The translations under genes and the position numbers were made by a program. From the NCBI GenBank assembly GCA_964036045.1, contig OZ038379.1, positions 70,400,719-70,464,718 on the forward strand: 64,000 bases of DNA, given 5' to 3'. Origin of the DNA: Eutreptiella sp. 'Long Island Sound 2002'. Taxonomy: Eukaryota; Euglenozoa; Euglenophyceae; Eutreptiales; Eutreptiaceae. Within the stretch, counting starts at the first letter, position 1. Every line of letters starts with the position of its first letter. Shown piece by piece: positions 22,342 through 56,485 of this stretch. The notes beneath the pieces are model-generated. The model searched no databases. It saw nothing but the letters and a program-made list of their open reading frames with translations, and was not told where the DNA came from.

Positions 22342-24530
22342 CGAAGCACGACACGGCGCAACACGGCACCACAAAGCAGGGCGCACCGCACCACGACGCA
22401 GCATGGCGAAACACGGCACAACACGGCACGGTACACAACAGCAAACCACAGCACCAAAGCAAGGGACCCTAACCGAGGGTCTGACCCAACTAAGCCGCCG
22501 CACACCCCAGAGAGCGCCGCACCAGCCCGCCACAAACCGGCAAGGGGTCGACCGCGCGCCCGGCAACGACGGTTGCGGTCTGCCCACACAAATCCCCGCC
22601 ATAAAGCGGAGGGACACGGAAAATCCCAGCCCCCCTAACCCAAGGCCACACGAAACGGCCTGGCGCAACCGCCAAGCCGGCAGAGCCAGAACCTAACCCG
22701 GCAAGAAGGGCCACCGAGCCAAGCGTGTACATAACCAACCCGACCCATGGGGCCTTGGCAAGACCTAGCAAAACGCAAGCACCAACAGCAACCCGGTTAA
22801 CCACACCGCATGCCGACCAGTGCGTGCACCAGCCCAGGGAAGGCAGAGGGAGGAACAGGCAGACCCCCCGGCAAAAAAAAAACAGGGTGGGGGGCACGAG
22901 AAAGGCCCCAGTCAGACAGCACCGAAGACGGGACCCCCAAATGAACACCGGAGGACCAATCAGCCAAAACCGGCGACATCCAACCGAGAGCAGCGGCCCA
23001 CCAGATGAAAGGACACCCCGAACACGCCGACACACAACTCGCTGGGGCGGAGACGGGCAAGGAGAAACATACAAACAACATGGAAACATACAAACATAGA
23101 AACATACAGCCTGAACGAGAGCGGAAGGGTGGACGGAGACCACCAGACCCAGAACCGGGACAGCCAGCGACGGACACCACAAAGCCACAACACGACACGA
23201 CACGACCCCCTCCCCCCGCAACCCAAAAAAAAAAGAAAAGGGGACGGGGGGGAAGAAACCCCAACCATGGCAACACCCGCACACCCCCACGCCACAGGCA
23301 GCCCCCAGAAGGTGACGGGAAACAGACGCGGCGCACTCAAGAGGCCCCGCGCCCCAGTACCCAAGCCAGAAAAAAACCAGAGAGCAGACGAAACCCAAAC
23401 CCACACAGACGCGCCCCACCCCGCTAGAAATGGTCGGGTGCAAGCGGGGCACACGCACGAACACAAACACACCCCAACACCCCAACCAAGAGAGGCGGGG
23501 CACGGCCGAAGCCTTAGCCCAACACACACGCCCACACCGCACACCTCAATCAGGAATGGCGGGGTACAAGCGGGGCGCGCACACAAACCCCTACACGCCC
23601 CAACACCCGAGCCAGGAGTGGCAGAGCGCGGCTGCAACCCAGGCCCAAGCACACACCCCCGCACCGCACCCCCAGCCATGAGGGGCAGGGGACCGGGCAG
23701 GACGCGCACACAAACACACACACACCCAAACACCTCACCCAGGAGTGGCGGGGCGCAGCCGAAACCCGAGCCCAAGCAAACACACCCACACCGCACACCC
23801 GAGACGAGACCGGCGGGGTACAGGCGGAGCGCGCACAATACCACGCATGCCCCAACCAAGAATGGTGGGGTGCAGGCCGAAATTCAAGCCCGACCGCAAA
23901 TACCGCGAACCCCAGCCGGGAGTGGAGGGGCGAAACCACAACCCGTACCCAAACACACCCGGTAAAGACCCGAGCCAGGGCTGGCAGAGTTACCGCGACC
24001 CGAACCCAAGCACAACCCGGACCCAAACACAAACGCCACACAACAAAAGAAAACCCAGCGTCCATAGCCCGGGCACTGAGGCAGCCTGTGCCATGCAGGT
24101 GACCCGGCCAAACGAGATCCGGAGCCCGGGGGTAAGGCTGCATCCTAAGGCCAGCGCTGCTTTGGGACTCGAGGCGGAGCGTGCGACACCCAAGCGCCTC
24201 GGAACCCCAGTACCAAGAACATGCACGCATGCCTTGGGAACGGGATACGCCAGGAAGTCAGGTGAACCTCTAGGGTTCCGTCCAAAGGAGGGGACGTGCG
24301 AAAGCACGGGGGCACACCCTCCCGGCGAGACGGGCACGTCACGCTGGTGGCAAACAGCCCTCCCGGTGCAGCCCGGGGCCGCTTTGTTGGGGGCCACCAG
24401 TCAGGTCTAGCGGGATGTAAGTCGCTTCCCCTCTTCAAGCGCGGAGCCTCCTCCTGTTCGTCACAGCGGCAACGCCAGCGGGAGAAAGGAGCGCCTCTCC
24501 ACGACCGAGAGCCCCTACCTACCCACCTGC
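22342..24530 (+). mobile_element. GC-rich minisatellite block A inside Gypsy-1
   Basis: Sequence of entirely different composition lies between two copies of a Gypsy-1 segment: 13,388-22,341 (minus LINE-1) on the left and 24,531-25,507 on the right. It holds an irregular 5' part with A-rich and G-rich runs (22,870-22,905 and 23,222-23,262), a minisatellite (23,415-24,020), a 3' part that resembles 56,240-56,400, and a terminal CCTACCTACC run. No protein domain is visible; long minus-strand ORFs here only reflect GC-richness. See findings for the comparison with block B. Confidence 0.55.
23415..24020. repeat. Minisatellite A, about 62-bp units
   Basis: Some ten degenerate units carry a core like GCCAGGAGTGGCGGGG followed by CGCAGCC-type and ACACCGCACAC segments. 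GGAGTGG-like cores at 23,553, 23,615, about 23,679 and 23,742 are 62-64 bp apart. The core is an inverted repeat, GCCA/TGGC. Confidence 0.7.
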
Positions 24531-25565
24531 ATCCGATGGCTGTGCTCTAAGGCGTGGGGGAATACATCAATATTGCTGCACTTATGCAAAAGATTGAATA
24601 AACCTCAAGTGGTTCGAACAGTGGCCAATCAACATCGGAAATGACCCGCATATTTGAAACATCCTTCGTTGAATGTGACAGAACGGCGATGGATCTGGGG
24701 GTTCTTTGATCGGAATGTTTTCTTGATTGATCTGCCAAATGCAATGCTGCACTGGAGGTACACAATACTAACATACAAGACAACACGGGAAAGACATTAG
24801 CAGGAGAGGAAGGAGATGGAGAAACCTGATGCGGAGGAATCTCCAGCACCATAGGCGGCCCTGAGGGCACATCAGCATCTGGGCTGTGCAATGCAACCTG
24901 AGAAACACAGTGAACGGCATCAGCAGTGGCACCAAAAAGGCATTCTTGGTGTCCAACCGAATCCGAACCACGATTCTCCCCTTCAAAAAATGCCTGTTGT
25001 GTTGCTAAAAAATAATTAGCTGACGCTTCTTTCGATGGTTTAGTAATCTCACGCGACTGCACCCATGGATGTGGTGCGAGTTCACTGACGCCAGCAGGCA
25101 AATCAGTAGATATGTCGGCCTTACCCACGTCCTCTTCAAACATAAAACATGGGGGTTCTATTTTAATATGGATGCCGTAGCGAGCAAAAATTGGAAATCC
25201 CAGAATACAGCGGGGGCCCGACGTTGGCGATGTATATGGTAGCATCACGACATCTCGCCATTACGACCCCATCACAGCTCACAGGCACAATGATGTCGCC
25301 TCTTACATCCTGCTTGCCCCCTTCAAGGTGAGCCTGTCCCACTCCCATCAAATTGAATGGTACTGTGGCCGCTTCCCTCAGGAGGAGGGGTACCAATTCT
25401 TGACCTATCACCACCATACACTCACATCCTGTATCCCCTAACATGGAGCAACAGATAGGTGCTGGGTGCGGATCCTTATAGGGCGATATTGAACCTGGTA
25501 CGATGACTCCAGTGGATGTTCTTTTGAGATTGGTATAACCTCCATCTTAGTTTGGTATTTCCGAA
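24531..25565 (-). pseudogene. Second copy of Gypsy-1 protease and linker segment
   Basis: This matches 13,388-13,663 plus 21,661-22,341, with LINE-1 absent. Reading minus, it starts with a GGYTNLKRTSTGVIVPG lead-in, then LGDTGCECMVV (protease DTG), ILGFPIFARYGIHI, and a 233-codon frame (24,547-25,248) through the linker. It retains about 60 bp upstream of the DTG that the left copy lacks, so it represents the 5' side of the interrupted element. It also shows the LINE-1 target site unoccupied. Differences from the left copy are scattered, so the duplication is not recent. Confidence 0.8.
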
Positions 25566-29560: not shown

Positions 29561-29601
29561 TCCCTACCGAAAGAAAGTCTATGTGGCGTATCGTTAGCAC
29601 A

Positions 29602-30979: not shown

Positions 30980-31871
30980 TATTACAAAATTGAAACGACT
31001 TCAAAACTCGTGCGGTCGGCCACGACAACCCAAAGGCCCAGACACAGTACACAAATCCTCCTTATACCACTGTACAATACTACTATGATCTGTACGTACC
31101 AATACTTCCTGATGTCCTATCCATGACTGAAACTTTAACAAACTACATACAACAGCATACATCTCTCTTTCCCTCACTGTCCATCCGTCCTGTCCTATAC
31201 CTTTATCTTTATGCTTACCTGCTGTCTTACTGCCCTGAGGTTTTCTAGAAAAAAAACGACAGATGCCAATTCCCGTCGTCCTGTTCCTGTTCTAACAGTC
31301 CCCCTACAGCGAAATCTGATGCATCAGTGGACAACCGCCACCGTGCACCAGGACGCGGTAGATACAACTCAACTTTCTCAATCAGAGAATCTTTGATTTG
31401 CTGAAATCCCGACTCCATTTCAGGAGTCCACTTGATCTCTGATTGTTTGGGGGTAAGCTTACCCATTACCATCTACTGCCGGCCCCCCTTGTACATCCTC
31501 AAACTAATACATACCTTTTAGGGCTTCCATCAAGGGGGCAGCATACTTGGCATAGTTACGTATATACATACTATACCAATTTGCCAAACCAAGGAAATTC
31601 TTTCAGAGCCTTGGCATTGGTAATGTGTTTGATTTCCCAATCTCGAAGGGCCTGTGTTTTACTCGGATTAGGGAAGCGTTTGCCGTTACAAAGTACATGC
31701 CCTACATACTGTACTTGACGGCGCAGCAAAAAACACTTTTCAGGCTTGACCGTGAGGTCAGCAGATGCAAATGCATGAAACAGCTCACGCATACAAAGAT
31801 AATGATAATACAACTTATCCTGATCTGAAGGGTGGGAAGGAATGATAAATGAAAAGGGGGTGACCATATCA
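30980..31871 (-). pseudogene. Gypsy-2 end of reverse transcriptase and RNase H
   Basis: 31,571-31,871 reads PSDQDKLYYHYL, KPEKCFLLRRQVQYVGHVL and NGKRFPNPSK, the palm-to-thumb region after the YxDD motif. After a frameshift, 31,245-31,472 starts RNase H with WRLSTDASDFAVGG (Asp). Past a run of eight T (minus strand) near 31,250 the frame shifts and continues with REREMYAVVCSLLKF (Glu) and VRTDHSS (Asp), down to about 30,980. The N-terminal two thirds of RT is missing, cut by the junction with C-rich DNA. Confidence 0.8.
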
Positions 31872-33812
31872 GAAAATGCTGTGCCACGACGCGGCAAAGA
31901 GAAACAGGGGGGAGGGCACGCAAAGGGGGCGGCGGGGGGACACACCACCACCAACAGACCCGCGCCAGGGGTGGGGGGGAACCACACCCGGGCCCCAAAG
32001 CCAGGGCGGGAGAGAGGCCACGACACACAGCCCCCGCACCCACACAGAGGCGCCAAACCAAGCCCAGAGAGGCGAGGACAGGCACCCAAACGCACCACCA
32101 ACACACCGCACACACGCCCGCGCGCGCACACAACACACAGCGCCACTGCCGCCACCAACACCAGCCCTACAGACGCACACGACACACCAAAGCGCGAGCA
32201 CCGCCCGCACCAGAAACGCACACAACACAGGAAAACCAGAAGAACAAGAACCCAGCAACCCTCCGCCAGGGGAGCTGCAGGGCCGCCAGAAACACCACTA
32301 GGACACCAGGGTAGACCAACCAGCACCACCCACCAAGCCCTCAGCCAGGAGTGGCGAGCGCCCACACCCAGCAAGACCCAACGACCAACCACGCCCAAAC
32401 CCACACCCAGCACCAGTAACTGCGACACCCACACCAGCACCACAACAAACAACCAAACCAAAACCACCCAAACCGTACGCCACAACACCCTCACCAGCGG
32501 AAACATCCGGAGCCAACGGAGACACCGGCGGCAAGGACACCCAGTACATCAACAACAGCACCCTCACTGTCGACAACACCAGCAGCCCCAGCACCCAGCA
32601 CAACACCTAAGACACCCTCGTCAACATCAACGCAACACAAGAAGCCACCCAACACCGGCCAACGACCACACCCGCGCCACCCACCGACCCGCACCCACAG
32701 CCGCCACCGCGCCAGCATCCACACCATCGGTAACACCAACACCACCAACAATCATGCCGGCACAACACCCTCACGATCACCATCATCGGCAGCGCCGTCG
32801 TCCTCACCAACGCCTATGACACCTACGCACGCCAACACCAGGAACAACACCTACATCACCCAAGCCAACGGCATCAAAAAAACCATAGCCAGCACCACCC
32901 CACCATCAGCGTCGCCACCGGCAACCTCCGGCACCGGAGGCAACCAACGCCACCACAACCGGTAAACCAACAAACCACCAAGCCTCTGCCAGAGGAGGCA
33001 AGGGCACATGCCAAGAACCATCAACAAGAACACCCTCGCCACCAAAGCATCGCACAAGACGCCATCCACCACACCATCACAAGCGGCACTCACATTACGG
33101 GCGCAAGCAACACCAACCTCACCCACGACATCACCCGGGGCATCGCCTGCAACACCCTCACCAACGGCATCACCAGCCGCCCACACCACCTACTGCACAC
33201 CCTCCCTGTCACAGCACAGGGAACTAGCCCGCGCCCAGCCCCGAACACAAGCCACTGACCGCCCACACACGGACCCACACCAACCACCAGCAGCATCAGC
33301 ACCATCAGGGACGCCGTAAACCATAGCAACGCCTTCAACGGCCTCGCCACCGGCATCACCAACAGCACCACCGACAGCGCGATCTCAGCAACAACAACCC
33401 GGAGCGTCAACGACAGCCACCATGGCGACACCACCCGGTACGACGCCTGCAACACCATCGGCATCAACGACACCGAGGGGCCCCCGCAGGCACGGCGAAC
33501 ACCGCCAGGGCCAACACACCGGCCAGCAACGCCCTCGGGAACCTCCGCCAGGAGTGGCGAGGTTCCACCCCCAAGGCACCGTCAGAACACCACCATCCAC
33601 CCGCATCACCTACAAGGCCCTCGCCATCGGCATCACCGGCAACGCCAACACCCGAAGCTCCGCCGGCGGCGCCCTCACCAACAACGTCACCAGCACCACC
33701 GACAGCGGCACCACAGCATCCACCCACAGCATCGACACCCTCGACCACAACCGCTGCAACACCTACAACTACAGACCCAAAGCCAGCCAAAGGAACTACC
33801 CGAACACCAGAA
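31872..33812 (+). repeat. C-rich degenerate Asn/Thr repeat region, left part of LINE-2
   Basis: Very C- and A-rich DNA dominated by ACC, AAC and ATC triplets. Where frames stay open they give recurring phrases such as CNTLTNGITSR, GITNSTTDS and NTSSPS, resembling a degenerate repeat protein rich in Asn and Thr, but frames change every 50-150 bp. The left edge at about 31,872 abuts Gypsy-2 RT. The first 60 bp resemble an A-rich/G-rich motif in block A (22,870). The right edge is the Gypsy-3 LTR; similar sequence resumes at 45,152. CGCCAGGAGTGGCG-type hairpins lie at 32,343 and 33,545. Confidence 0.5.
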
Positions 33813-34598
33813 GAAAAGTTCATAGTGATTTCAACACTGTGTTTGTGCCTTCCCTGCTGCTTGCTGCTGGTGTAGGGTTCCCTGCTGCTTGTTTTTGAAG
33901 ATGAAAAGCTTTTGTTTGCTGAAATACAATCAATCCAGGATAGCCCAAGCCAGAGATATGCAAGTACAAGAGAATCAGGATCAAAGCATGAAGGGCTGCA
34001 GTGTAAACAGTGAAAGATGATTGAATATTCACAGAAACTGCAACTCAGGGCAAATCTGATTGCATATTCACAAAGATAGCTAAAATGTTTTGGAAAAGAG
34101 TTGGAAAACTGCCCCAAGGTCACTCAATCTCCATAGTGCCATCTCAGGAGATGTGCACTCTTTGTTTTGGGTCCCATATGTGCTGAGGTGGCATGGCATG
34201 TGGCGATGAGGTCACTGCCATGTCACATGGGATCTTCCTACTTAGCTAGGCTGACCGGGAATTGAACCCAGGACCTCTCAAAAAGAGGTGCCCAGCCCCC
34301 TAGGGTGCATACCATTAGGACAGCTAGGAATTCATGAGAAAACATAGATAAATTCATAGGCTCTGCCCTGGATATGTCAGTTCTCAGTCGACTCAGGAAA
34401 AGATGATTTGCCTCACATTGAAAGGGGTTTAAGGGGTCCACTCCATATCCTGATTGGGTGTTTGGTTCCATAGGTCAAAATGTGTTTTCACCCATTTTGG
34501 TTAGGCCAATACTAAGATAGAAATGCCTGGATGCTCAGTGCATCTCTAATACAACTAGAGTATGCCTCAAAGCATTGGAAAAGCACTTTTTCTTACTC
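33813..34598 (-). repeat. Gypsy-3 3' LTR
   Basis: 786 bp, the same length as its partner at 44,366-45,151. On the element's strand it starts GAGTAAG and ends ACTTTTC, so it lacks the usual TG...CA ends. It contains a tRNA-like segment at 34,249-34,325. Confidence 0.92.
34249..34325 (-). other. tRNA-like 77-nt segment in LTR (left copy)
   Basis: On the minus strand the segment has a T-arm-like GGGTTCAATTCCCGG, an anticodon-arm-like stem ACCTC/GAGGT around a seven-base loop TTTTTGA, a D-arm-like TGGTATGC, and partly complementary ends (AGCTGTC and GTCAGCC). The length fits a tRNA. The variable region would be too short and the acceptor stem is imperfect, so it is at best tRNA-derived. The GGTTCAATTCC block resembles a pol III B box. 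Confidence 0.45.
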
Positions 34599-34605
34599 CC
34601 CCCTT
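34599..34605 (-). other. Polypurine tract next to Gypsy-3 3' LTR
   Basis: On the minus strand AAGGGGG directly precedes the 3' LTR. This is where plus-strand DNA synthesis is primed in LTR elements. The tract is short, so the call rests on position. Confidence 0.5.
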
Positions 34606-36882: not shown

Positions 36883-38456
36883 TCAGTCCCTAGCTTTAGT
36901 CTTGGAGGCAAGCGTCTCAGCGAGCCTCAGCAACTCACCAAGGGTGTTCTGGGACAAGTAGTCAACCGGAACTGATTTTAGGCGTCCCTCAGGTAGAACA
37001 AACGCGGAGAAGGGCTCCCAGGTGGCCTCTTCGACTCCAACCCCTTCCCAGAGGGTGCGGAAGCGCCAACCCTGGCGAGAGCGGTGGCGTAGGACAGACT
37101 TCACCAGGTAGAAGCCCTCCTTAGCCATCTCCTCCGCGTTCATGTCGGGGAGTTCACCTTCAACTTCCATAGCGCTGGCAGCCCCTTGTAGGTCCAGAGC
37201 GGCGATTTCCTCGTCGTTCAGCTCCCACTCTTCCCCACAGAGGTCTTCAGGATCATAGTAGCGCTTAAGGTGTTGAGCAGCGCACACCAGGGTCCCCCCT
37301 AGACGGGGAGAACACTGCACGGTGATACGGTGTCCATCCACTTCTAGAATCTTGTACGGCCCGAAGTATGGGTCATCGCTGGTAGAGCGTGGCCAGGCGG
37401 GTAGTCGACTGTTGTGCACCAGCACCCAGTCCCCGTCTTGGTAGGTGGCCGGTACTCGGAGCTTGTTCTTCTTGTTCCACTGACGCTCCCTCACTCTCTG
37501 GAGCATAGCCTTGGCCTTGTCCACCTTCGCTTGTTGCTCTTGGACCCATTCACCCACAGAAGAATGGGTGTCCTCTGGATAGGGGGCATGTAGGAACCAT
37601 GCCGGGCGCCCTAGGAATAGCTCATGGGGCGAGTAGCCAGTAGCTGAACTCTCTTGGGAGTTCATCATCAAGGATATGACGGGGAGTAGTCTCACCCAGT
37701 CTCTGGTGCGTTCAGTTTTGCACCAAATCCTTACATTCTCCTTGAGGACACGGATCTGTTGCTCACATAGGGGGTTGCTCGTGTGAGAGTAGGGAATCCC
37801 GGTAGACACCTGGAGATTGAGGGACCTCAGGACCCTCTTGTACCAGCCAGTATCTGAGCGTACTCGTACGTCCTCATCGGAGTTGATCTTTTTTTCTTGA
37901 TAGTCTCCACTCCGGTAATGTGCTTGGTACATCGGAACACCCTGGTAAACCTGGTCAACCCACAGGTTACCACGAGGGCGAAGTCATAGCCCCCGAACTT
38001 CGGCATCTCCGTGTAGTCCGCGTATAGAACACTGTTAGCACAGTGAGGGATGGGCAGGGTCGAGTAGAGACCTCTGTCCCTGATATCCCCTGGTTTGCAG
38101 GACCTGCACGGGCACTTGTCCACGATAGGCTGGAGGGTTTTCCGCAGTTGGTCGTCAGTCCACATAGTGTGGAACCACTGCTTGAACAGCCTCAGGGTAC
38201 GGTCAGCACCCACATGACCGCTGGACTCATGGGTCCACTTCAGCAGCGCTGGGACTCTGTCACTAGGCACCACGATGCGGTTCTCGTGCCAGAGGTAGCT
38301 CTTGTCCCTCTTCCACTGATCTTGGTTGACCAGGAGGGGTTCAAGGCGTTTCTCCAGGCGCTTGTAGATATCCCCAAACTCCTTCAGGTACTCCGAATGT
38401 TGGAGTCCATCCAGGGGGCGTATCATCGTCATGTTGAGGTCCAAGCGGACGTCCAT
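36883..38456 (-). pseudogene. Gypsy-3 integrase with C-terminal chromodomain
   Basis: 37,827-38,456 encodes the zinc finger (HESSGHVGADR and CPCRSCK) and the first catalytic Asp (YADYTEM). After a frameshift at a T run (37,889-37,895), 36,883-37,932 continues with RSDTGWYKR (Asp), NPLCEQQIRVLKE (Glu), the DGDWVLVHN region, and near its C-terminus FYLVKSVLRH, then TLWEGV and ATWEPFSAFVL, a chromodomain. All DDE residues are present. The chromodomain would direct insertion to marked chromatin. It ends in a stop at 36,883. Confidence 0.9.
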
Positions 38457-40204: not shown

Positions 40205-40222
40205 CTCCGGTGGATGATGGCA

Positions 40223-41420: not shown

Positions 41421-41429
41421 GTAGATGAG

Positions 41430-41815: not shown

Positions 41816-41823
41816 GGCCATCC

Positions 41824-44264: not shown

Positions 44265-44352
44265 CTTCGTTCGCCCTTCTGCCTATATGTGACTGATCTC
44301 GGCGCACTGGTTGTACGGCACGGGGTTGCTGCCGGTACGCAGAGACAGTCTG

Positions 44353-44365
44353 CCTCTTGCTACCA
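44353..44365 (-). other. Primer-binding site of Gypsy-3
   Basis: Directly after the 5' LTR, the minus strand reads TGGTAGCAAGAGG. It resembles the complement of an initiator-tRNA-Met 3' end (TGGTAGCAGAGG in several eukaryotes) with one extra A. There is no spacer between LTR and site. Confidence 0.65.
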
Positions 44366-45151
44366 GAAAAGTTTATAGTGATTTCAACACTGTGTTTGTG
44401 CCTCTCCTGCTGCTTGCTGCTGGTGTAGGGTTCCCTGCTGCTTGTTTTTGAAGATGAAAAGCTTTTGTTTGCTGAAATACAATCAATCCAGGATGGCCCA
44501 AGCCAGAGATATGCAAGTACAAGAGAATCAGGATCGAAGCATGAAGGGCTGCAGTGTAAACAGTGAAAGATGGAAGGATATTCGCAGAAACTGCAATTCA
44601 AGGCACATCTGATTGCATATTCACAAAGATAGCTAAAATGTTTTGAAAAAGAGTTTGAAAACTGCCCCAAGGTCACCCAATCTCCATAGTGCCATCTCCG
44701 GAGTTGTGCACTCCTTGTTTTGGGTCCCATATGTGCTGAGGTGGCAGGGCATGTGGCGATGAGGTCACTGCCATGTCACATGGGATCTTCCTACTTAGCT
44801 AGGCAGACCGGGAATTGAACCCAGGACCTCTCAAAAAGAGGTGCCCAGCCCCCTAGGGTGCATACCACTAGGACAGCTAAGAATTCAGGAGAAAACATGG
44901 ATAATTTCATAGGCTCTGCCCTGGATATGTCAGTTCTCAGTCGACTCAGGAAAAGATGATTTGCCTCACATTGAAAGGGGATTAAGGGGTCCACTCAATA
45001 TCCTGATTGGGTGTTTGGTTCCATAGGTCAAAATGTGTTATCACCACTTTTGGTGGGGCCAATACTAAGATAGAAATGCCTGGATGCTCAGTGCATTTCT
45101 AATACAACTAGAGTATGCCTCAGAGCATTGAAAAAGCACTTTTTCCTACTC
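44366..45151 (-). repeat. Gypsy-3 5' LTR
   Basis: 786 bp, partner of 33,813-34,598. It should contain the element's promoter, but no TATA box or start site can be assigned with confidence. Confidence 0.92.
44802..44878 (-). other. tRNA-like 77-nt segment in LTR (right copy)
   Basis: The same structure as at 34,249-34,325 with about three differences. Here the D-arm side reads CCTAGTGGTATGC, closer to a normal tRNA A box, while the acceptor 3' side is GTCTGCC. Confidence 0.45.
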
Positions 45152-47400
45152 AGAGACAACCATCACCACCAGGACCGCAAGCCAACCAACCACCAGCCAA
45201 GAGTGGCACGCCCAAAACCGCCGACCACCCATACGCAGGCCGCGCCCAGCACCAACACCAACAACACCCACACCATGAGACCATTACGAGACACACCAAC
45301 GAACAAATATCACCTGTGACACCCTCACTGTCGGCAACACCAGCGTCGCCAATAGCCACGGCACTATCCACACCACCGCCAACCCCACCAACAACGTGCC
45401 AGGGTACGTCACCTACAACAACCCTATCATCACCACCACGACCCCGGCACAGAGTAACAACTACGGCGCCCCCACCAACGGCGTCACCACAGACGCCAGC
45501 AGGGCTGGCGAACAAACGCCACCAAAGCCACCCACCGGGCCCCCCGCCAGCAGTAGCAACAGCACACACTAAACCCACCAACATCAACGCCAGTGGCACC
45601 GCAGGGTAACACACCGCCTACCTACAACACCCTATCCATTCGCTTCACCGCCCGCAGCATCAACATCACCCGGAGCATGGTCAACAACCACCCCGGGCAG
45701 CACAAATAACCACAACAATACCATCACATCCACCACCCTCACCAGCAGCGACACCAGCGGCACCCTCCGCCAGCAGTGGCCAGGAGACAGCCCTACAACG
45801 CGGGGCCGCAACCAGCGACCCCAGCTCCCTCACCATCGGAGCACCACCACTGGCACCAACCCCAAAACACCACCATCAGCGTCACCACCCCACCGATGCC
45901 TGACACGACAACCACACAGCCCGCACAAACGGCATCAGCCGAACCGTCACCGACACCACCTGCACCAATCTCACCGGCGGCATAGCCCGGTTAACCACCT
46001 GCGACCGCGAACCGCAGCCACTAACAACCAGGACATCGCCGACAACACTCCCGGCCAACGACCGCACCGCCCTCAACAACACCACCGAAAGCAGCACCGT
46101 CGACCGATGGCCACATCACCCTCACAAACCACCTGGATACGGGTCCCCCGCCCCATCCTCCCTCCCACGAACAACAGCGGCTCACCTACAGCCCCCATCA
46201 TCTGCACAACCAGCGACACTATCACCAGCACCAACCGAAACACCGGCGACGTCAGCCTCACCAACAACCGGCACCCCCACTACCACTGCCACCAGCGCCA
46301 CCACCACCAGTCACGCCACCCACCGTCGGTGCCAGCCACCAACGACGCCAACGCCGCACCCTAAACCACACCTACAACCAAAACCTGCAGCAACACCCGC
46401 GGTAACCACACCAGCAACATCACCCTCCACCAGGAACGGCCACCCAACACCGACACGGCCAGAAGACGATGATCAACACCAGCAGGAAGGCCAGCCCTTA
46501 GCGCCCACAACAGCCCAAAGACCTCCCGCACCCGGACCCACACCCAGAAACAGCACCTACGCCGACGCACCATCAGTGTCACCGACACCCGGGAAGACAC
46601 CAACAGCGCCCTCGCCGTCACCGCCACGGACCTCGATGAACTAACGTCCACATCACTGCCGCCACCGCACCCATGCCATCGGCATCACTACCAGCACACC
46701 TGGCCGGGCCTTCATTGGCACCGCCGCCCATGGCATCACCTGCACTCACCAGCGCCACGACCACCCCGCGCAAACCCAGGAGCCTGGCATCGCCAACGGC
46801 CTCAACGAATGTCGACACCACCAACACCACCACCACCGGACCGGGTCTAGAGAAAACAGACCAAGAACAGCTCCACCACCATCAACCAGTACACCACCTG
46901 CGACACCCCAACGTCGCCAACACCACCCTCACCACCACAGCGCCTAACACACCTCCACCGCCGGCGGCGACATCAGCGACACCAACCGTCATCTACAGCA
47001 CCCTCGCCACCACCGCCACATCTGGCCCACATACGTTACGCCCCCAATGGCCAGAGACAACACCCTCACCATTGACGCCACCGGCAACACCACACCTCCC
47101 CATTCGTCACCCTCGGCATCACCAACCGAACCACCGACCTAACCATCAGTGTCCACGACACCACCAGAGGCACCAATACCACCCGCAAAGGCAACAGCGA
47201 CAACAGTAACTGGCTGATCCACCAACGTCACCATCAACTAACGCAGTCCCTGCACCAGCCTCTCCTGCACTAACGCCTATACAGCCCTCACCAACCGCAC
47301 CAAGCGGCACAATCATCGACACCAACATCACCACCACCACCCAAGGGTCAGGGCTCGCGAGGAACGGAACAGCAGAGCGAGCACACCACCACCCGCACGC
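45152..47400 (+). repeat. C-rich degenerate Asn/Thr repeat region, right part
   Basis: It continues the 31,872-33,812 composition after Gypsy-3. Open patches give phrases such as CDTLTVGNTSVANS, NGVTTDA, TNLTGGIARLT and LGITNRTTDLT. No frame stays open for more than about 170 codons, and even those change character. It may be the wreck of one long repeat protein, or a minisatellite that reads as one by composition. Hairpin-type motifs are at 45,195 and 45,768. Confidence 0.45.
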
Positions 47401-47709
47401 GTCGCCCACCCTATTGTACACCGCTCCCAACACCGCGGCCACACCGCCCCCCCGCTTCCCCCGACAGGACGTGCGCTGCAGCCCACTGCTGAGACGACGT
47501 CTACGACGTCCACGCGGCCATCTGACACCTACTGGCAGCCACGGCCCCGCGCCCACAAGCCCACCAGCAACCCATGGAACCGGAACCGCAAGAGGCCCAC
47601 CACCCCATGCCACCACGCTCTATATCCCCCGCGTCCACGGCAGACCAGAACGCGGAACCGCAGGAGCTCGACCACGCCGCCACGCCCCCACCGCCCCCCC
47701 CCTGAAAGG

Positions 47710-48419
47710 ACATCTACGCCACACTGGCCGGCACCCTAGCCCCCATGGACGCCTAGCAGTACTACCAGTCCATCCAACGAGACCTCCCAGCTGACCACGC
47801 GACCCTCCAGGGGTGGAAGCAGGAGAAAAGGAACGACAACAAGTGGGGCACGGATGAAGACCTTCTCTGGGAAGACACCTGGAAAGGCACCATGGACACC
47901 TTCCTGGAAGCGGCAGCCGAAACCTACCCCCGCCCGCCCGGGGACACCAGGAACGGCCTCCACGCCCTCCTAGCATTCCACAGCTGGAAATACCGCCACA
48001 CCATCATCCCCCACCCCCTCGACCACAATCCACACCGACGGACACCTGAAGACGACGCCACCGCCGCCATCACCGTACAGCAAAACCCCGAGAACCCAGA
48101 TGAGTACCACATCACCTGGAACGATCCGGCACCCCACTCCCCCGCCTCCCCCACCCTCCCAGATGTCTTCGCCACCATCAGCGCAGAACTGCAGGAAGCG
48201 AAAGCCCCACAACAACCGGACGAAGAGATGCCCCAGGCACCATCCCCACCAACCACACAGGAAAGCCCCTGCACAGAGCCCCTCAGCCACCCCATCAACA
48301 CAATGGAACTCCCCCGACAGCGACGCGACACCTGCCACGGAAATCAGCGGTCCACAACGGCACACTCTGAAGGGACAAAATCACACCGAGGCTCCAGGCC
48401 ATCCGCCTCCACTCGATGA
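47710..48419 (+). pseudogene. LINE-2 ORF-a, unknown function
   Basis: The coding frame can be followed from DIYATLAGTLAPMDA (about 47,710) through an in-frame TAG at 47,754-47,756, QYYQSIQRDLPADH and TDEDLLWEDTWKG, to the 175-codon ORF starting at 47,892. It has Trp- and Asp/Glu-rich helical stretches and a Pro-rich tail. No zinc knuckle is seen. The stop TGA overlaps the next ATG (ATGA at 48,416-48,419). By position it is part of an ORF1-type protein. Confidence 0.5.
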
Positions 48420-50215
48420 CCGAACCCACCACCACCTGGGCACCACCGACAGGCCGCCACCAACTCCTCCTCACCGTCCAAGGGGATGCCACAATCACAC
48501 CAATGGAGGGAGACCCCATAACAGCAGCCCCCGCCCACGCCGCCCAGATACCCCCGCAAGCATCGTCCGCACCCATGGCGGTACATCCAGGCCCCTCCGA
48601 ATGGCAAGCCATCGTCATCACCTACCCCACCCCCGACAACCACACACACACCTGTCAGCAACGGTGGGAGGACATCCGGGGGGACCTCCTCCAAGAACAC
48701 CTAGGGCTCACGCGCATCCACCACACCCTCCTACCGGTACGGGGAGTAGGCCAAGCACCACACGGCATACACACCCCGGGGTTATGGGCGTACGCCACAC
48801 CCATAACCCGAAAAGCAGCGGAGGACATCAAGACCGCACTATCCATCCAGCAAGCCCGGACCCAGACCCCGCACCGCAACGCCCAACGAGGCTACACCAT
48901 TTGGTGGGCACATCAAGACCACGACACCCTCACCCCCGAACCAAGGGCCCCCCCTCTAGACACCAACCCAACCGCCCTCCTCCAAGCCGCAGCAGCGGCA
49001 GCGACCCAGCTAGGGGCCCCGGAAACCTCGGGCCCGCAATACCTGGTCGAAACCAAAGTGGCACCCCACGCAAAGGCCCAAGAAAAGCCCCCATCGCCGA
49101 AGCCACTCCATCCCCAACCCAAGCTGGACACGAAGGAGCACGGTCCCCACGACGAATGGGCGACCCACTACATCATCCCCCACACCACCAACTGCAAGAA
49201 CGACACCGCCAAGATCACCGTCCCCCGCCACCTCCCCCACACCACACAGGTGTACGAGCTGATGGCCCCCAACGTCCTCGTCACCCGTCGCCGACACGAC
49301 GAGCGATACACCATACAGGCGGAGGGGGCCGCCGCGACCATCCCGTACACATGGGCAACACGGGGGGACCTCCCACACCCCACCCTCCACCACGCCCCCT
49401 CCTGGCCCACAGTCTTCCACACAGCAGACCGCCCCAACAAGAAACCCAAACACACAGGCGTACACAGCCCCGCCCAGGATGCCCAGCACCAACATGATGC
49501 AGGGTGCAAGGCCCGCACCCTCCACGACGACCACACCATCCCCCGCATCAGCGCCCCCCCCGCCAGAGTGTCTGATGCCACCCACAACCGCACGATCACA
49601 GGCATTATCACGGACTTCCTGAACCCAGCGGCGTCACGGGCAGATGCCGTGTGGATCAGCGAAGGGCGATCCCACGCACGGGCGGTGAAGCGCCTCAACG
49701 ACATCCAACCCCGCCAACTCCAGCGCGCTGCCGGACCCTTCGCCGTACACATCACCCCGTACGGCATCAACCACCCCCGGTGTGAGCACCATGACCAGCC
49801 CTGCTACACTCCATGCACCTCGCCTCTGACCCAACCGCTCCCGGCCCCCACCATCACGGGCAACATGTACCTGGGCACCGTACCGGCGAACCCAGGCATA
49901 TACATCCTGCCCAACAGGTCCAGGGAACACGCCATCCCCCTCCACGGAGTCGAGTCCCTCGCCCAGGGACCGCCTCCACCAAAACACCAACACCAGCACA
50001 TCCTGGGGGACAAACGGACGCAGGCGCCAGACGGGGGAAAAATAGCCCACCAACGCGCCGTAGCCCACATCACCGTCCACCCCACAGCCCACCTACAAAA
50101 AGACTTCGGCACGGAGCGCAACATCGTCCTGCAGGGGCAAGCCCACCACATCATCACCGCTGCCCTATACAACCTCGCCACCCACGAACACCACTGGGCC
50201 CCCACAGCAAACTGA
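48416..50215 (+). CDS. LINE-2 ORF-b, 599 codons, unknown function
   Basis: One uninterrupted frame of 599 codons, remarkable in an element that is otherwise broken. The ATG overlaps the ORF-a stop; the next ORF starts three bases after its own stop (TGA GCG ATG). The N-terminal half has a Trp-containing globular pattern (TPGLWAYATPITRKAAEDI). The C-terminal third has a His/Cys cluster (NHPRCEHHDQPCYTPC) and then YLGTVPANPGIYILP. The His/Cys cluster might bind zinc. I recognise no family. Confidence 0.55.
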   Translation: MTEPTTTWAPPTGRHQLLLTVQGDATITPMEGDPITAAPAHAAQIPPQASSAPMAVHPGPSEWQAIVITYPTPDNHTHTCQQRWEDIRGDLLQEHLGLTRIHHTLLPVRGVGQAPHGIHTPGLWAYATPITRKAAEDIKTALSIQQARTQTPHRNAQRGYTIWWAHQDHDTLTPEPRAPPLDTNPTALLQAAAAAATQLGAPETSGPQYLVETKVAPHAKAQEKPPSPKPLHPQPKLDTKEHGPHDEWATHYIIPHTTNCKNDTAKITVPRHLPHTTQVYELMAPNVLVTRRRHDERYTIQAEGAAATIPYTWATRGDLPHPTLHHAPSWPTVFHTADRPNKKPKHTGVHSPAQDAQHQHDAGCKARTLHDDHTIPRISAPPARVSDATHNRTITGIITDFLNPAASRADAVWISEGRSHARAVKRLNDIQPRQLQRAAGPFAVHITPYGINHPRCEHHDQPCYTPCTSPLTQPLPAPTITGNMYLGTVPANPGIYILPNRSREHAIPLHGVESLAQGPPPPKHQHQHILGDKRTQAPDGGKIAHQRAVAHITVHPTAHLQKDFGTERNIVLQGQAHHIITAALYNLATHEHHWAPTAN

Positions 50216-50218
50216 GCG

Positions 50219-51458
50219 ATGCCCCCACCACCGCAAGGCCCCAAAGATCCCGTCACCCCCTTCCACACCGATCAACTCCTAGGCCGCAGGGCCACCCCAC
50301 ACCTCCACCCCTCCAGGATAGAACTAGCCATCGCATCGTGGGACACCCTGGACATGCCCCCCCAACAACCCGCCATCGGCATCCTCAAAGCGGACGCCAA
50401 ATGGTGGGCCCTCAACTGGGCACAGGGAGTCCTCATGGCGGCCCAGGCCTACACCCCGGAAATAGACCCGAAAGACCCCCCGCGAGGCCGGCAGCGACTC
50501 CCCCAGGCCACCACCCTCACAGGCCGCGAATGCGCCCTGTGGGAAGCCCTCCACACAGCACTCTACTGGGCTCAAGGGTCCCCCAGCGGCCCAGACACAC
50601 CGGAACCCACGGAGGCCTGGGTCATGCAGGCCAAGGCCATGAGGAACTACCACCTCCACCACCCTTTCGACGACAGCCCGGCCGCACTGCCATGGCCAAC
50701 CGATCCCCCGGAGACCGTGCGCAAGCTCGCTGACCCCACACACAGCCACGCGAAAGCGACCATGCAAACGCCGGCAGAACCCCCGCTAAGGGATCCGGGC
50801 CAGCAGGCAACGCATCCCTTCTTCAAACCCCACGCTCCCCCAGCCCCACCACCCCCAGTCCCACCAAAGCGAGCGAGACAAAAAAGGGGCGCACCCGCCC
50901 CCAAAGAAGCCGGAAAAGCAGCAACCTCCCAACCCCCCGCACCCCCCCCGACCCACCCGGCAAACCCGGACCAAGCATCCTCGTCATCTTCCCTCCGATC
51001 ATTACCACCGCCCCGACCGGACCAGGCATCCTCATCATCCTCCCTCCCGCCACCAGCACCGCCCCAACCCGAGGCGTACCCAGGATTCGAAAAAGGCGCG
51101 AAGGTCCAGCAGCCCTTCTGCAACGACCACACAGGCGACTGGATCTGGTGTGAGGGCACAATCCAGTACCGCCTCCGCGACCTGGGGGACAACAGGGGGG
51201 CCACAGATCCGGGTGGTCTGGCACCGCCAAAAGGAGCTAGACCAAGGCAGCAGCGCCCCGGACAAGCCAGAAGGCCGAACCCTGGATCTCAACAGCGCCT
51301 ACCCCATCCGGCTCCGCACCGACGAGAACAAGGCCCACAGAGGCACCAAATACACTCGGGAAACCCCCCCGGAGTGGAGCCAAGGGCTCCCCCCGACGCG
51401 CCTACCCAAGCGCCCACCACCAGGCAAAAAGTCCCCGGGCCCCAGTCCCCCTCCCTGA
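50219..51458 (+). pseudogene. LINE-2 ORF-c with possible Tudor/chromo-like fold
   Basis: The frame from 50,219 encodes a globular start (IELAIASWDTLDMPPQQ, ALNWAQGVLMAAQAYTPE), then a long Pro/Ser-rich linker. A compact segment follows: GAKVQQPF, DWIWCEGTIQYRLRDLGD, and after a frameshift near 51,190 IRVVWHRQKELDQ. A Trp-rich strand pattern with 'x-W-x-x-G-x-I' and 'V-V-W' resembles Tudor or related barrel domains, but this is only a shape-level similarity. It ends just before the endonuclease. Confidence 0.45.
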
Positions 51459-51499
51459 CGGGCCCAGGGCTGAGGGCACAAGCCTCCACAGCCCCGGCC

Positions 51500-52308
51500 C
51501 ACCCCACCGAGGCCACCGTCAACCTCCTTGCCCTCAACCACCCAGCCGTCACATACTCCAAGGACGCCACAACCGCCCTCCAGGAGCTCGATGGCACAGG
51601 GGCCGGAGTGGGTTCCCCAACCTCCTCGCCTTCCAGGAACAAGGCCTACAACACGACTACCCCCCAGAAACCACCCCCATATATACCCCGGACCAGAAAG
51701 CGTAGAAATGCTACTGGCACAAGGGGACCCCCCTGTACGCCCAAACCGGCATCCACGTCCACCTCGTCCACCACCTCAGCATCCCTGGGAGGCTAGGCGT
51801 CTACGAGGTCGTCGGGGACTTATGGCAACTCAACGTCATCAACGCCCACGTCGCCTTCGGCGACGCGACGGAACCCTTCCTCCAAGCCCTAGCCGAGGCA
51901 TACCGCCAGATGGCCATGCTCGCCCCCACAATCATCATCAGCGACCTGAACCCCGCCTCAACCCCGGCCGACCGAGGGGGACAGGCCACACCCCAGGACC
52001 ATGCAGTCCGCGACACCATCAAAATGCTGGGGCTCGTCAACCTGACCGCAGACCTCGAAGGCCAATCATCCCACTTCCCCAACCAAGCGGATGCCGCCCC
52101 CTCCCGCATCGACGTATGCTATGGCGACCCCACCACCATCATCCGGGCAGAGGCTCGATATGGACCCCTCCCGCTGGGACCAACAGGCCATAGCCCCCTG
52201 TACACCCGCTTCACCATCCCCAACCTTCCCCCGAGCCCCTCAGAGGATGCGGACCAAGGCCTACCACCCCCCCTGAGGATGCCGGGACTGCACGACAAAC
52301 AGGCCTAG
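51500..52308 (+). pseudogene. LINE-2 APE-type endonuclease
   Basis: Motifs in order: TVNLLALNHP, NLLAFQEQGL (catalytic Glu), TIIISDLNPAS (usually GDFN), PSRIDVCYGD, and TGHSPLYTRF (usually SDHxPL). Two frames are needed: the shift near 51,600 lies between the first strand and the Glu, and a TAG near 51,705 breaks the second frame. The frame ends at a TAG (52,306-52,308) and then continues in frame into the RT region. Some catalytic positions differ from the family, which may be decay or lineage-specific. Confidence 0.72.
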
Positions 52309-53277
52309 TCCCAATATCACAGGGCCAAAGACCGCGCCCGCCGCACCGGACCGGACCCCACCGACCTACTCACAGCCATGCGCACGGCCGCTGTCGCCTG
52401 CGGCTTCCAGCAACACCCCCACACTGACAACGACCGACCACCCACGGCCCTAGGGGACATGCTCAAAGACCTCTGGCATGCGGAGCAACAACTGGCGACC
52501 CTCCTCCACACCGACAGCCCCCGAACCCGCCCCCAGATACACCACTTCAGGAAGCAGATAGCCCACACCAGGGCAGACCCGCAGCGGTGGCACATCCACA
52601 GGCAACAGCGCATCACCCAGGAACACGAATGGTACGCGCAACATGAACTCCCCTACAAGGCCATCCGCCACCTCAACGACGCGATGACCGATCACGGTCA
52701 GACAAGAGGACGGCTACCTCAACAACAACCCAGCAACCGTGCTCCAAGCCACCCAAGACTGCTTCCTCCAACAACACACCCCCACCCAAGACACACTGGA
52801 CACGGACACCCAGGCCAAAATCAACCGCCTCCCTCAGGTCTTCAACCACGCCGAGAGGAGGCAACTGGAAAAGCGCCCCTTCACCATCCACGAAATCCGG
52901 AGGGCCACCCACAGGCTCCGGCAACACAAAACCCCAGGCTACGACGGCCTCCCTGCGGAGGCATACTACCACCTCCCCGCCCACCTCCTCCGCATCCCCG
53001 CCCACCGCTTCTGCGACATCGTCAGGGGCCAATCCCCCTACCACCAGACTGGGCAAACTTTGTCCGCCCCCTCTACAAAAAGGGGGACTGGGCCGAACCA
53101 GGACAACTGGTGCCCCATAGTCTGTGCAGTCACGGAGGTCAAAATCATCTGGACCGTCCTCCTACGCCGCATCCGCCCCCACCTGCACCCCCACATACCC
53201 GCCAGCCTCTGGGGGGCCATCCCAGGCCGGTCTGCACACGAGGCCATCGTCCTCCAGGATACCATCGCCGACATGGA
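52309..53277 (+). pseudogene. LINE-2 reverse transcriptase, N-terminal half
   Basis: After a helical linker (DMLKDLWHAEQQLATLL) and a frameshift near 52,690, RT motifs appear: FTIHEIRRATHRLRQ, KTPGYDGLPAEAYYHLP, FVRPLYKKGDW, DNWCPIVCAVTEVK, LLRRIRPHLHPHIPA and WGAIPGRSAHEA. They alternate between frames. The segment 52,967-53,277 recurs at 56,486-56,801 on the far side of block B. The left copy seems the more original: it keeps WANFVRPLY where the right copy has an expanded CCCCTACCA-type run. Confidence 0.8.
52967..53277 (+). repeat. Left copy of the 311-bp duplication flanking block B
   Basis: It starts at TACCACCTCCCCGCCCA and ends GCCGACATGGA. The partner is 56,486-56,801. About a tenth of positions differ, mostly in one stretch near position 100. 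Confidence 0.85.
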
Positions 53278-53580
53278 TACACACATGGACACAATAAGCC
53301 CGGTTCTCGGCCGGCCTCCACGTGCGCCACGCAGCCGCCCAATAAAGCCGGGGGCCCAAGCACCCGGGCTGGGGAAAGGCACCACGGCGTCGGGAAGGCC
53401 GACCAGAGCACCGAGAGCGACCGGACCGGACGAGGCGCGGCGCACCACGCAGGGGGCACGAGGCACGCCAGAGAGGCACGCTGCCGGCCACAACGGGAGC
53501 CGGGTGCCGCAAACCCGGAGAGCGCGCACAACATACACCGAACCATGGCACAGGAACAGGTGCCAAGCAACACCAGCTGC

Positions 53581-53720
53581 CGTCCAGATGGACGAGTGCG
53601 CGCCCGGAGGGTACCCAGCCCCTACCGGCTACAAACAGCCGCCGTCCGGATGGACGGGTGCACGCCCCGAGGGTACCCAGCCCCTACCGGCTACGAACAG
53701 CCGCCGTCCTGATGGACGAG
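53581..53720. repeat. 62-bp tandem repeat, about 2.3 units
   Basis: CGTCC(A/G/T)GATGGACG recurs at 53,581, 53,643 and 53,705, exactly 62 bp apart, with GAGGGTACCCAGCCCC in each full unit. Confidence 0.85.
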
Positions 53721-53769
53721 TGAACCCCCCGCAGCTACGCCCCGCCCACGCAACACCACACGCGCAACC

Positions 53770-55915
53770 CAAAGCACAGCACACAGAGCGAGCACACCGG
53801 TGTACAAGAGCCAAGCGGCCCAGGACACTGTACACGCAACACAACCCACCGAGCGGACGCACCGGTGAAGAGGAGCCAAGTGGCCCAGGACACCGCACAC
53901 GCAACACAACACACCGAGCGGGCACACCGGTGAACAGGAGCCAGGTGGCCCAGGACACCGCACACGCAAAACAACACACCGAGCGGGCACACCGGTGAAC
54001 AGGAGCCAAGTGGCCCGGGACACCGCACAAGCAAAGCAAAGGACGGAGCAGGCGCACCAGTGAACTGGAGCTAAGTGGCCCAGGACACTGTACACACAAC
54101 ACAACACACCGAGCGGGCACATCGGTGAACAGGAGCCAGGTGGCCCAGGACACCGCACACGCAAATCAACACACCGAGCGGGCACACCGGTGAACAGGAG
54201 CCAAGTGGCCCAGGACACCGCACGAACAAAGCACAGGACGGAGCGGGCGCACCGGTAAACGGGAGCCAAGTGGCCCAGGACACCGCACACGCAACACAAC
54301 ACACGGAGCTGCACACCGGTGAACAGGAGCCACGAGGCTGAGGACACCGCACACGCAAAACAACACACGGAGTGGGGACACCGATGACCAGGAGCCAAGG
54401 GGCCCAGGACGCCGCACACCCGCAGCAGCACACCGAGTGGGCGCACAGGTGAACAGGAGCCAAGTGGCCCAGGACATCGCACACACAACACAACGCACCG
54501 AGCGGGCGCACCGGTGAACAGGAGCCAGGTGGCCCAGGACACCGCATGCACAACACAACACACCGAGCGGGCTCACCGTTGAACAGGAGCCAAGTGGCCC
54601 AGGACACCGCACACGCAAAGCAACACACGAAGCGGGCACACCGTTGAACAGGAGCCAAGCGGCCCAGGACACCGCACAAGCAAAGCAACGGACGGAGCGG
54701 GCGCACCGGTGAACGAGCGCCAAGTGGCCCAGGACACCGTACACGCAACACAACACACCAAGTGGGCACACCGGTGAACAGGAGCCAGGGGGCCGAGGAC
54801 ACCGCACACGCAAAACAACACATCGAGCGGGCACACCGGTGAACAGGAGCCAAGTGGCCCAGGACACCGCACGAACAAAGCAAGAGACGGAGCGGGCACA
54901 CCGGTGAACGGCAGCCAAGTGGCCCAGGACACTGCACACGCAACAGAACACACTGAGCGGCACACCGGTGAATGAGGGCGCCGAGGCCCAGGACACCGCA
55001 CACGCAAAACAACACACCGAGCGGGCGCACAGGTGAACAGGAGCCAAGTGGCCCAGGACACCGCACACACAACACAACGCACCGAGCAGGCGCACCGGTG
55101 AACAGAAGCCAGGTGGCCCAGGACACCGCATGCACAACACAACACACCGAGCAGGCTCACCGGTGAACAGGAGCCAAGTGGCCCGGGACACCGCACAAGC
55201 AGCACAACCCATGGAGCGGGCACACCGGTGAACAGGAAGCCAAGTGGCCCAGGACTCCGCACACACTACAACACACCCAGCGGGTGCACCGCTGAACAGG
55301 AGCCAAGTGGCCCAGGACACCGCACACGTAACACAACACACGAGGCCGGCACACCGTTGAACAGGAGCCAAGTGGCCCAGGACTCCGCACACACTACAAC
55401 ACACCAAGCAGGCGCAACGAGGAACAGGAGCAAAGTGGCCCAGGACACCGCACACGAAACACAACACACCAAGCGGGCATACCGGTGAACAGGAGCCAAG
55501 TGGCCCAGGACACCGCACACGCAAAACAACACACCGAGCGGGCACACCGGTGAACAGGAGCCAAGTGGCCCAGGACACCGCACACGCAACACAACACACG
55601 GAGCGGGGACACTGGTGAACAGGAGCCAAGTGGCCCAGGACACCGCACACGCAAAGCAACACACCAAGCGGGCGCACCGGTGAACAAGAGCCAAGTGGCC
55701 CGGGACACCGCACACGCAACACAACACACCCAGCGGGCGCACCGGTGAACGGGAGCCAAGTGGCCCAGGACACGGCACACGCAACACAACACACCGAGCG
55801 AGGACGCCGGTGAACAGGAGCCAAGTAGCCCAGGACACCGCAGATGCAACACAGCAAACCGCGCGGGGACACCAGTGAACAGGAGCCAAGTGGCCCAGGA
55901 CACCGCACACACGTA
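53770..55915. repeat. 65-bp minisatellite, about 33 units
   Basis: Each unit has GAACAGGAGCCAAGTGGCCC, GGACACCGCACACGCAA and ACACACCGAGCGGGC. Positions of the TGGCCC core, 53,881, 53,946, 54,011, 54,076 and 54,141, are exactly 65 bp apart. Units vary by a few bases. GCCA-AG-TGGC in each unit is an inverted repeat and corresponds to the GCCAGGAGTGGC core of minisatellite A. Because 65 is not a multiple of three, a long frame passes through three successive translations of the unit. Confidence 0.92.
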
Positions 55916-56485
55916 GGGCGGCCGAGGGACAGGAAAGAACCAACACCGCATTGGTCGGACGCACTGGGGCGACCCAGCCGACCCACCGGGCCAGTGGCAG
56001 GAACGGTACTCCAAGGCCACTGGTCCGAGCCCGGCCAGGCTGCATCGGGGACCATGGCAAACGTCACCCAGAGCCATGGAAGCAACCGGTGACAGGCGAG
56101 CCGGTACACAGTCACGGAGGGGGTCGCCTGCCAAGCAGAGTGGCCCCGCAACTCAAGCCATAAGGCTGAGGCGGTCGTACCGTAGACTAGCGGGAGCAAT
56201 ACCCCTTCGGGTGAGAGATACTCCACACGGCTGGGCAGCCCCCAAAGCTGCCGCCCAAAGGAGGGGGCATGTGGCCCTACCCATGGACACATGTGGGAAC
56301 ACCCTCCCACCTGGGACACATGGACCGGGTGGCCGCGACAATGCCTTCCCAAGCACATGCGGGAGCAGCTCAAGAGGCACCTGACATAGGGCAGTGGGAG
56401 GGACAGGACGTCCCCTTGGTAAGACTTTCTTCCTGCGATGTCAAAGGAGGCATCCCGAGCTCCCGAAGATACCTACCTACCTACC

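What the first reader, a model, noticed from the sequence alone, without database searches (positions are those of the whole stretch)
22342..56485. Two related GC-rich minisatellite blocks, each between long direct duplications of the element it interrupts
Block A (22,342-24,530) splits Gypsy-1 and is flanked by about 960 bp of duplicated Gypsy-1 sequence. Block B (53,278-56,485) splits LINE-2 RT and is flanked by about 311 bp of duplicated RT sequence. Both contain 62-65-bp tandem units with a GCCA(n)TGGC core and an ACCGCACAC segment. Both share a similar 3' part (CCAAAGGAGGGG and ACACCCTCCC near 24,290/56,255) and both end in CCTACCTACC directly at the right duplication. Two independent events with the same architecture suggest one mechanism: either a mobile minisatellite-bearing element that makes very long target-site duplications, or a repair process that inserts this family while duplicating the break site.
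Basis: partly seen in the sequence, partly recalled or inferred. Interest (0 to 1): 0.78.

Follow-up and report, generated by a model that had tools for sequence, protein, structure and literature searches.

The report
LINE insertions with giant target duplications
The two GC-rich repeat blocks are the tail ends of LINE-type jumping genes that, on landing, duplicated hundreds of letters of the target DNA instead of the usual ten to twenty, which offers a natural case for studying the poorly understood last step of how such elements insert.

Summary
The blocks and their flanking duplications are real. Block A (22,342-24,530) and block B (53,278-56,484) are 5'-truncated 3' ends of two high-copy LINE families. 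Longer A copies run upstream into sequence matching window LINE-2. The minisatellites lie in the 3' UTRs; (CCTA)n is the tail. A and B align as DNA only in a ~50-nt hairpin module and the tail.

The flanking repeats are target-site duplications (TSDs). Of 20 insertions whose 5' end could be located, at least roughly (16 A, 4 B, the window's two included), 11 have a direct repeat between tail and 5' end: 83-1468 bp, median 645, 1.6-8.8% diverged. One is ambiguous; 8, all A, show none. Uninterrupted target copies span both junctions for two insertions. Copy divergence, and a LINE in only one TSD copy, argue against misassembly. That LINE has an ordinary 17-bp TSD, hinting that the trait is element-specific (n=1).

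Best explanation: target-primed reverse transcription with a distant second-strand cut. Closest parallels seen: L1 in human cells lacking nucleotide-excision repair, and rotifer R9 (126 bp). Host species, genome-wide frequency and mechanism remain open.

The parts
13388..13663 (.). Left TSD copy of insertion A, first part (Gypsy-1 sequence)
   Evidence: 94.9% to 24,531-24,806; start context
13664..21643 (+). LINE-1, inserted into the left TSD copy only; RT and RNase H; short A-rich tail; its own TSD is 17 bp (13,647-13,663 and 21,644-21,660)
   Evidence: Pfam RVT_1 and RNase_H; junction letters; L1 ORF2p match
21644..22341 (.). Left TSD copy of insertion A, second part
   Evidence: 91.4% to 24,790-25,507
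22342..24530 (+). Block A: 5'-truncated 3' end (3' UTR) of the LINE-2-type family, 2.19 kb
   Evidence: 84-89% to L010 and L023 outside the array, which continue upstream into sequence matching window 60,033-63,130; tail search: itself plus 39 others at 91-93%
23429..23837 (.). Minisatellite in A (127-bp unit, 3.2 copies)
24274..24329 (+). 3'-UTR hairpin module shared with B
   Evidence: alignment; pair counts
24513..24530 (+). CCTA-type 3' tail of A (limits approximate)
24531..25507 (.). Right TSD copy of insertion A, about 975 bp, 5.7% substitutions to the left copy
31860..33811 (+). Probable 5' part of LINE-2 (inferred from composition; left limit approximate)
45152..52965 (+). LINE-2, central part with endonuclease-like and RT start regions
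   Evidence: RT piece 52,688-53,287 matches human L1 ORF2p structures, E 1.4e-5
52966..53277 (.). Left TSD copy of insertion B (LINE-2 RT sequence)
53278..56484 (+). Block B: 5'-truncated 3' end of a second, distantly related LINE family, 3.2 kb
   Evidence: tail search: itself plus 39 others at 96-97%; longer copies L029, L030, L032, L035, L036
53775..55910 (.). 65-bp minisatellite in B, 32.9 copies (a further 62-bp array at 53,574-53,731)
56247..56314 (+). 3'-UTR hairpin module shared with A
56485..56801 (.). Right TSD copy of insertion B, 7.1% substitutions to the left copy
56802..63138 (+). LINE-2 continued (RT remainder, RNase-H-like and C-terminal ORFs by eye), cut at about 63,138 by another repeat

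Best explanation
Blocks A and B are 5'-truncated copies of two LINE (non-LTR retrotransposon) families that insert by target-primed reverse transcription at the (CCTA)n tail. Shown: fixed 3' end, variable 5' truncation, high copy number, and a direct duplication of 83-1468 bp of target between tail and 5' end in 11 of 20 insertions whose 5' end could be located. Inferred: one strand is nicked and primes cDNA on the CCTA tail, and the second strand is cut or primed hundreds of bases downstream rather than 10-20, so that the stretch between is duplicated. The hairpin module in both 3' UTRs is proposed as the RT's recognition site (inference).
For: Tails: 40 matches from 40 scored candidates each for A and B, self included, out of first looks of 2,327 and 591 candidates. 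Element nature: A-type copies L010, L011, L013, L023 run upstream into sequence 86-90% identical to window LINE-2 59,923-62,476. TSDs (left-copy length): A family L014 1013, L017 984, L019 514, L020 976, L021 1468, L028 161, window A about 975 bp; B family L031 83, L033 108, L034 645, window B 312 bp. The repeat starts within 10 bp of the tail in 8 of 10 fetched loci that have one. In 4 of 6 such A loci (L017, L019, L020, L021) the left copy ends within 3 bp of where similarity to other LINE copies begins; L014 and L028 could not be judged so, as their upstream parts match the comparison copies poorly. Uninterrupted target copies span both junctions for L021 and L028, the end junction for L017 and the start junction for L014. 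TSD copies differ by 1.6-8.8%, as expected of old insertions and not of assembly errors. LINE-1 in the same window has a 17-bp TSD.
Against: 8 of the 20, all A, show no duplication: L009, L012, L015 (same locus as L016), L022, L024, L025, L026, L027; about 10 kb downstream was checked for L009 and L012, about 2.4-2.8 kb for the others. L018 is ambiguous: 62 bp, starting 910 bp after the tail. In L020 the right copy starts 118 bp after the tail. L029's 600-bp flank, a high-copy repeat, had no second copy beside L029 among its 40 scored matches of 2,662 candidates. No outside empty site was found among the held sequences for 7 of 11 insertions. The 17-bp control is one copy; four more LINE-1 copies gave no usable 5' junction. 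The loci come from the best tail matches (20 of 39 other A hits, 8 of 39 other B hits), not a random sample.
Confidence: 0.85

Rival explanations
1. The host, not the element, is peculiar: its repair (for example of the nucleotide-excision type) fails to place the second nick nearby, so LINEs in this genome generally leave long TSDs.
For: In NER-deficient human cells L1 TSDs exceeded 100 bp in 4 of 7, 21 of 23 and 22 of 28 inserts (PMC5223499, passages), a size range like the one here.
Against: LINE-1 in the window left only 17 bp, but that is one copy.
Confidence: 0.2
2. Replication-linked second-strand priming: the second strand starts from a distant 3' end at a fork or gap (such as a lagging-strand fragment), not from a second cut by the LINE enzyme. 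A sub-form of the main explanation.
For: TSD lengths are widely spread (83-1468 bp) with no fixed spacing, and TSD ends show no common motif by eye; no motif search was run.
Against: Nothing here tests it.
Confidence: 0.25
3. Duplications made by unequal recombination or repair after an ordinary short-TSD insertion.
For: Several targets are themselves repeats, and 8 insertions have no long TSD.
Against: The right copy starts within 10 bp of the tail in 8 of 10 loci, and the left copy ends at the element's 5' end within 3 bp in 4 of 6 A loci; recombination would not respect both element ends.
Confidence: 0.05
4. Misassembly.
For: No reads were available.
Against: The pattern recurs on several chromosomes; copies differ by 1.6-8.8%; LINE-1 sits in only one TSD copy.
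Confidence: 0.02

Closest known systems
Human L1 in NER-deficient (XPA, XPC, XPD) cells, PMC5223499 (passages read)
   Same: LINE insertions with TSDs from over 100 bp to over 1 kb
   Different: There it is a defect of cultured cells; here inherited insertions of two LINE families in a genome where another LINE left 17 bp
R9, rDNA-specific LINE of bdelloid rotifers (126 bp stagger as cited in PMC6895275, passages; original paper not held)
   Same: A LINE with an exceptionally long TSD
   Different: R9 is named in its title as rDNA-specific and one length is cited; here targets are dispersed and length varies 83-1468 bp
APE-type LINEs with RNase H (I, R1, LOA, Tad and similar clades; names recalled)
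   Same: Endonuclease-like, RT and RNase-H-like regions in LINE-2, the first and last by eye
   Different: APE-LINE staggers are generally 10-20 bp (PMC6895275, passage); clade not determined here
SVA and LAVA (VNTR composite retrotransposons of hominoids; abstract start in the listing)
   Same: A VNTR inside a retrotransposed unit
   Different: Those are non-autonomous composites; here the VNTR lies in the LINE's own 3' UTR

Membership tests
LINE / non-LTR retrotransposon | Reverse transcriptase of LINE type | tested here: met
   LINE-2 RT piece matches human L1 ORF2p structures at E 1.4e-5 and RVT_1 weakly, E 6e-5 to 0.07 in four overlapping pieces, all under the curated cut-off; four of 120 listed relatives carry precomputed PF00078
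LINE / non-LTR retrotransposon | Fixed 3' end, simple tail, frequent 5' truncation | tested here: met
   20 of 20 fetched A loci and 8 of 8 B loci end in CCTA-type tails; the TSD-bounded elements are 0.46-5.3 kb long
LINE / non-LTR retrotransposon | Target-site duplication | tested here: met
   11 of 20 resolvable insertions; 8 none, 1 ambiguous
LINE / non-LTR retrotransposon | Usual TSD length of about 10-20 bp | tested here: not met
   83-1468 bp; a usual trait rather than a strict criterion
APE-type LINE | APE-like endonuclease domain | tested here: inconclusive
   Residues resembling APE motifs by eye in 51,706-52,305, but no Pfam match
LTR retrotransposon (flanking duplications as LTRs) | The same terminal repeat in every copy | tested here: not met
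   The flanking repeat starts and ends with different sequence at each of the 11 insertions

The most novel reading that the evidence does not exclude
A lineage of LINEs whose insertion step is built so that second-strand initiation lies 0.1-1.5 kb from the first nick, so that many or most insertions duplicate a stretch of the host genome. With copies that may number thousands, this would make the LINE a steady generator of small direct duplications flanking a repeat.
Probability: 0.5. Interest if true: 0.75.

Novelty: new variant of a known kind. Interest (0 to 1): 0.6.

Why it matters
The second half of LINE integration is called very poorly understood (PMC6895275, abstract and passages seen). 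Families that naturally place second-strand initiation hundreds of bases away, in a genome where another LINE left a 17-bp TSD, would make the question testable by comparison. Each such insertion also duplicates target DNA, so these LINEs would feed small segmental duplications. A scan of the kind used in one recent study, which looked only for perfect repeats of 10-49 bases (PMC13295347, passage), would miss this.

Tried and rejected
Considered and rejected: LTR identity of the duplications (they differ at each insertion); a separate minisatellite transposon (the blocks continue into LINE sequence in longer copies); misassembly; general DNA-level kinship of A and B (E = 0.19).

Led nowhere: Rfam scan of the window (0 matches); Pfam on the C-terminal LINE ORF (two weak matches under the cut-off and one protein without a match); naming the host (the family search for a mitochondrial protein did not complete; none of the 120 listed protein relatives carries a name). 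Four further LINE-1 copies as controls gave no usable 5' junctions. A random-point control gave 35 of 312 points with a repeat; by inspection all but three (one each in L012, L015, L016) lie inside the LINE or inside TSD copies found above, so the control is uninformative as designed and the start-position test is used instead. The hairpin module has one pair with a change on both sides: weak support. A search for short TSDs in nine loci around approximate boundaries (L018 and eight without a long TSD) found only matches of 5-12 letters, as chance would give; TSDs of that size cannot be excluded.

Full report
WHAT IS THERE. Self-comparison confirms the duplications flanking both blocks. For A, the right copy (24,531-25,507) equals 13,388-13,663 followed by 21,644-22,341. 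The left copy is therefore split by an 8-kb LINE (LINE-1; RT and RNase H) that has a 17-bp TSD of its own (letters). For B, 52,966-53,277 is repeated at 56,485-56,801. Both blocks end in CCTA-type repeats at the right copy.

WHAT THE BLOCKS ARE. The last 331 bases of A and a 381-base stretch ending 4 bases before the end of B each gave 40 matches from 40 scored candidates, self included; the first looks named 2,327 and 591 candidates, and counts are lower bounds. I fetched 20 of the 39 other A places (19 distinct, since L015 and L016 are the same locus on two contigs) and 8 of the 39 other B places. All 28 end in CCTA-type tails. A-type copies L010, L011, L013 and L023 extend to or near the edge of the fetched DNA, and their upstream parts are 86-90% identical to window LINE-2 59,923-62,476, then 82-87% to about 63,130. 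Block A is thus the 3' UTR end of the LINE-2 family, 5'-truncated. Longer B copies run upstream into proline-rich ORFs; in L029 one of them matches the A-type C-terminal region of L010 weakly (24% identity, E 6e-5), so B is a distinct, distantly related LINE family. LINE-2's RT region matches human L1 ORF2p structures (E 1.4e-5); Pfam support is under the curated cut-off.

THE LONG TSDs. For each locus the right flank was compared with the DNA upstream of the tail. Lengths of the left copies: A family L014 1013, L017 984, L019 514, L020 976, L021 1468, L028 161, window A about 975 bp; B family L031 83, L033 108, L034 645, window B 312 bp; median 645. Substitution divergence between copies is 1.6-8.8%. 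In L017, L019, L020 and L021 the left copy ends within 3 bp of where similarity to other LINE copies begins; for L014 and L028 that comparison is not possible, as their upstream parts match the comparison copies only in patches. Exceptions: in L020 the right copy starts 118 bp after the tail, and L018 has only 62 bp starting 910 bp after it. Of the 10 fetched loci with any such repeat, 8 start within 10 bp of the tail (p about 2e-16 under a uniform start). In 7 of 10 insertions, by eye and leaving out L020, the first TSD base continues the CCTA tail (p 0.0035 at 25%), a hint of annealing at priming.

MISSES. Eight A insertions whose 5' end lies in the fetched DNA, judged by the composition change and by loss of similarity (L022 and L025 roughly), show no duplication: L009, L012, L015/L016, L022, L024, L025, L026, L027. 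For L009 and L012 about 10 kb downstream was examined, for the others 2.4-2.8 kb. Short TSDs were looked for only around approximate boundaries; matches of 5-12 letters appeared, as chance would give. Four A loci (L010, L011, L013, L023) and five B loci (L029, L030, L032, L035, L036) run off the fetched DNA and cannot be judged. The tally is 11 with, 1 ambiguous and 8 without, of 20; among B it is 4 of 4. For L029 the first 600 bp of flank is a high-copy repeat and none of its 40 scored matches, of 2,662 candidates, lies beside L029, so a young TSD of 600 bp or more is unlikely there; a shorter or more diverged one would not have been seen.

EMPTY SITES. Target repeats without the insertion are present in the window and other loci for 4 of 11 insertions: for L021 and L028 related copies run unbroken across both the start and the end of the duplicated stretch, for L017 across the end, for L014 across the start. 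For the other 7 none was found among the sequences held. RT relatives in the protein database also run on across the point where B's TSD ends (P0109, by eye).

WHAT THE TWO FAMILIES SHARE. Apart from the tail, A and B share one module about 200 bases from the 3' end: CCAAAGGAGGGG, a short hairpin, and a CACACCCTCCC-like strand. A two-helix structure of 10 pairs is formed in 97.6% of 210 cells, with one pair changed on both sides; 6 of the 10 pairs never vary. This is suggestive only, since between the families it counts as one event.

HOW IT PROBABLY WORKS. Step 1 (inferred from the fixed tail): the LINE enzyme nicks one strand and primes cDNA on the CCTA tail. Step 2 (inferred from 5' truncation): cDNA synthesis often stops early. 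Step 3 (inferred from the TSDs): the other strand is opened hundreds of bases downstream, so the stretch between is duplicated. Whether the enzyme cuts there, or a chance nick or replication intermediate is used, is open. In NER-deficient human cells L1 leaves TSDs over 100 bp in 57-91% of inserts, against at most 10% in earlier HeLa work and 3 of 9 in complemented cells, and the authors propose use of a distal nick (PMC5223499, passages). The single LINE-1 with 17 bp in the same genome argues for an element-specific cause but is one copy.

PRIOR WORK. The open-access full-text searches (listings and abstract starts, plus passages in PMC5223499, PMC2861651, PMC6895275, PMC3774820, PMC1291365 and PMC13295347) showed me no natural LINE family with TSDs typically of many hundreds of bases. 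[quoted passage not shown] Most subscription papers are not held, so this is no proof of novelty. Human L1 and zebrafish ZfL2-1 gave 15-bp and 5-bp TSDs in chicken DT40 cells (PMC4245944, start of abstract in the listing), so TSD length can depend on the element.

VERDICT. It is a new variant of a known kind: LINEs with very long target-site duplications.

Noticed in passing
window 31,860-63,138: If 31,860-33,811 and 45,152 onward belong to one element, LINE-2 plus the 3.9-kb 3' part seen in L010 would be about 20 kb, unusually long for a LINE. It is interrupted by an LTR element, by block B and, at about 63,138, by another repeat.
   Followed up: partly
window 33,812-45,151: A probable LTR element with 787-bp repeats (33,812-34,598 and 44,365-45,151) that are 95.3% identical, inserted in LINE-2.
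   Followed up: partly
L018 1,569-2,539, minus strand: 909 bp of sequence not found in the left flank lie between the CCTA tail and a 62-bp repeat of the left flank; this could be a transduced stretch, a later insertion or a damaged long TSD.
   Followed up: partly
L009 and L014: Two A insertions lie in the same host repeat, one of them with a clean 1-kb TSD and the other with none found.
   Followed up: partly
window 60,607-61,314 and L029 1,990-2,550: A C-terminal ORF region shared, at low identity, by both LINE families, without any significant Pfam match.
   Followed up: partly
window 3,737-4,247: A 184-bp tandem repeat, 2.3-2.8 copies.
   Followed up: no
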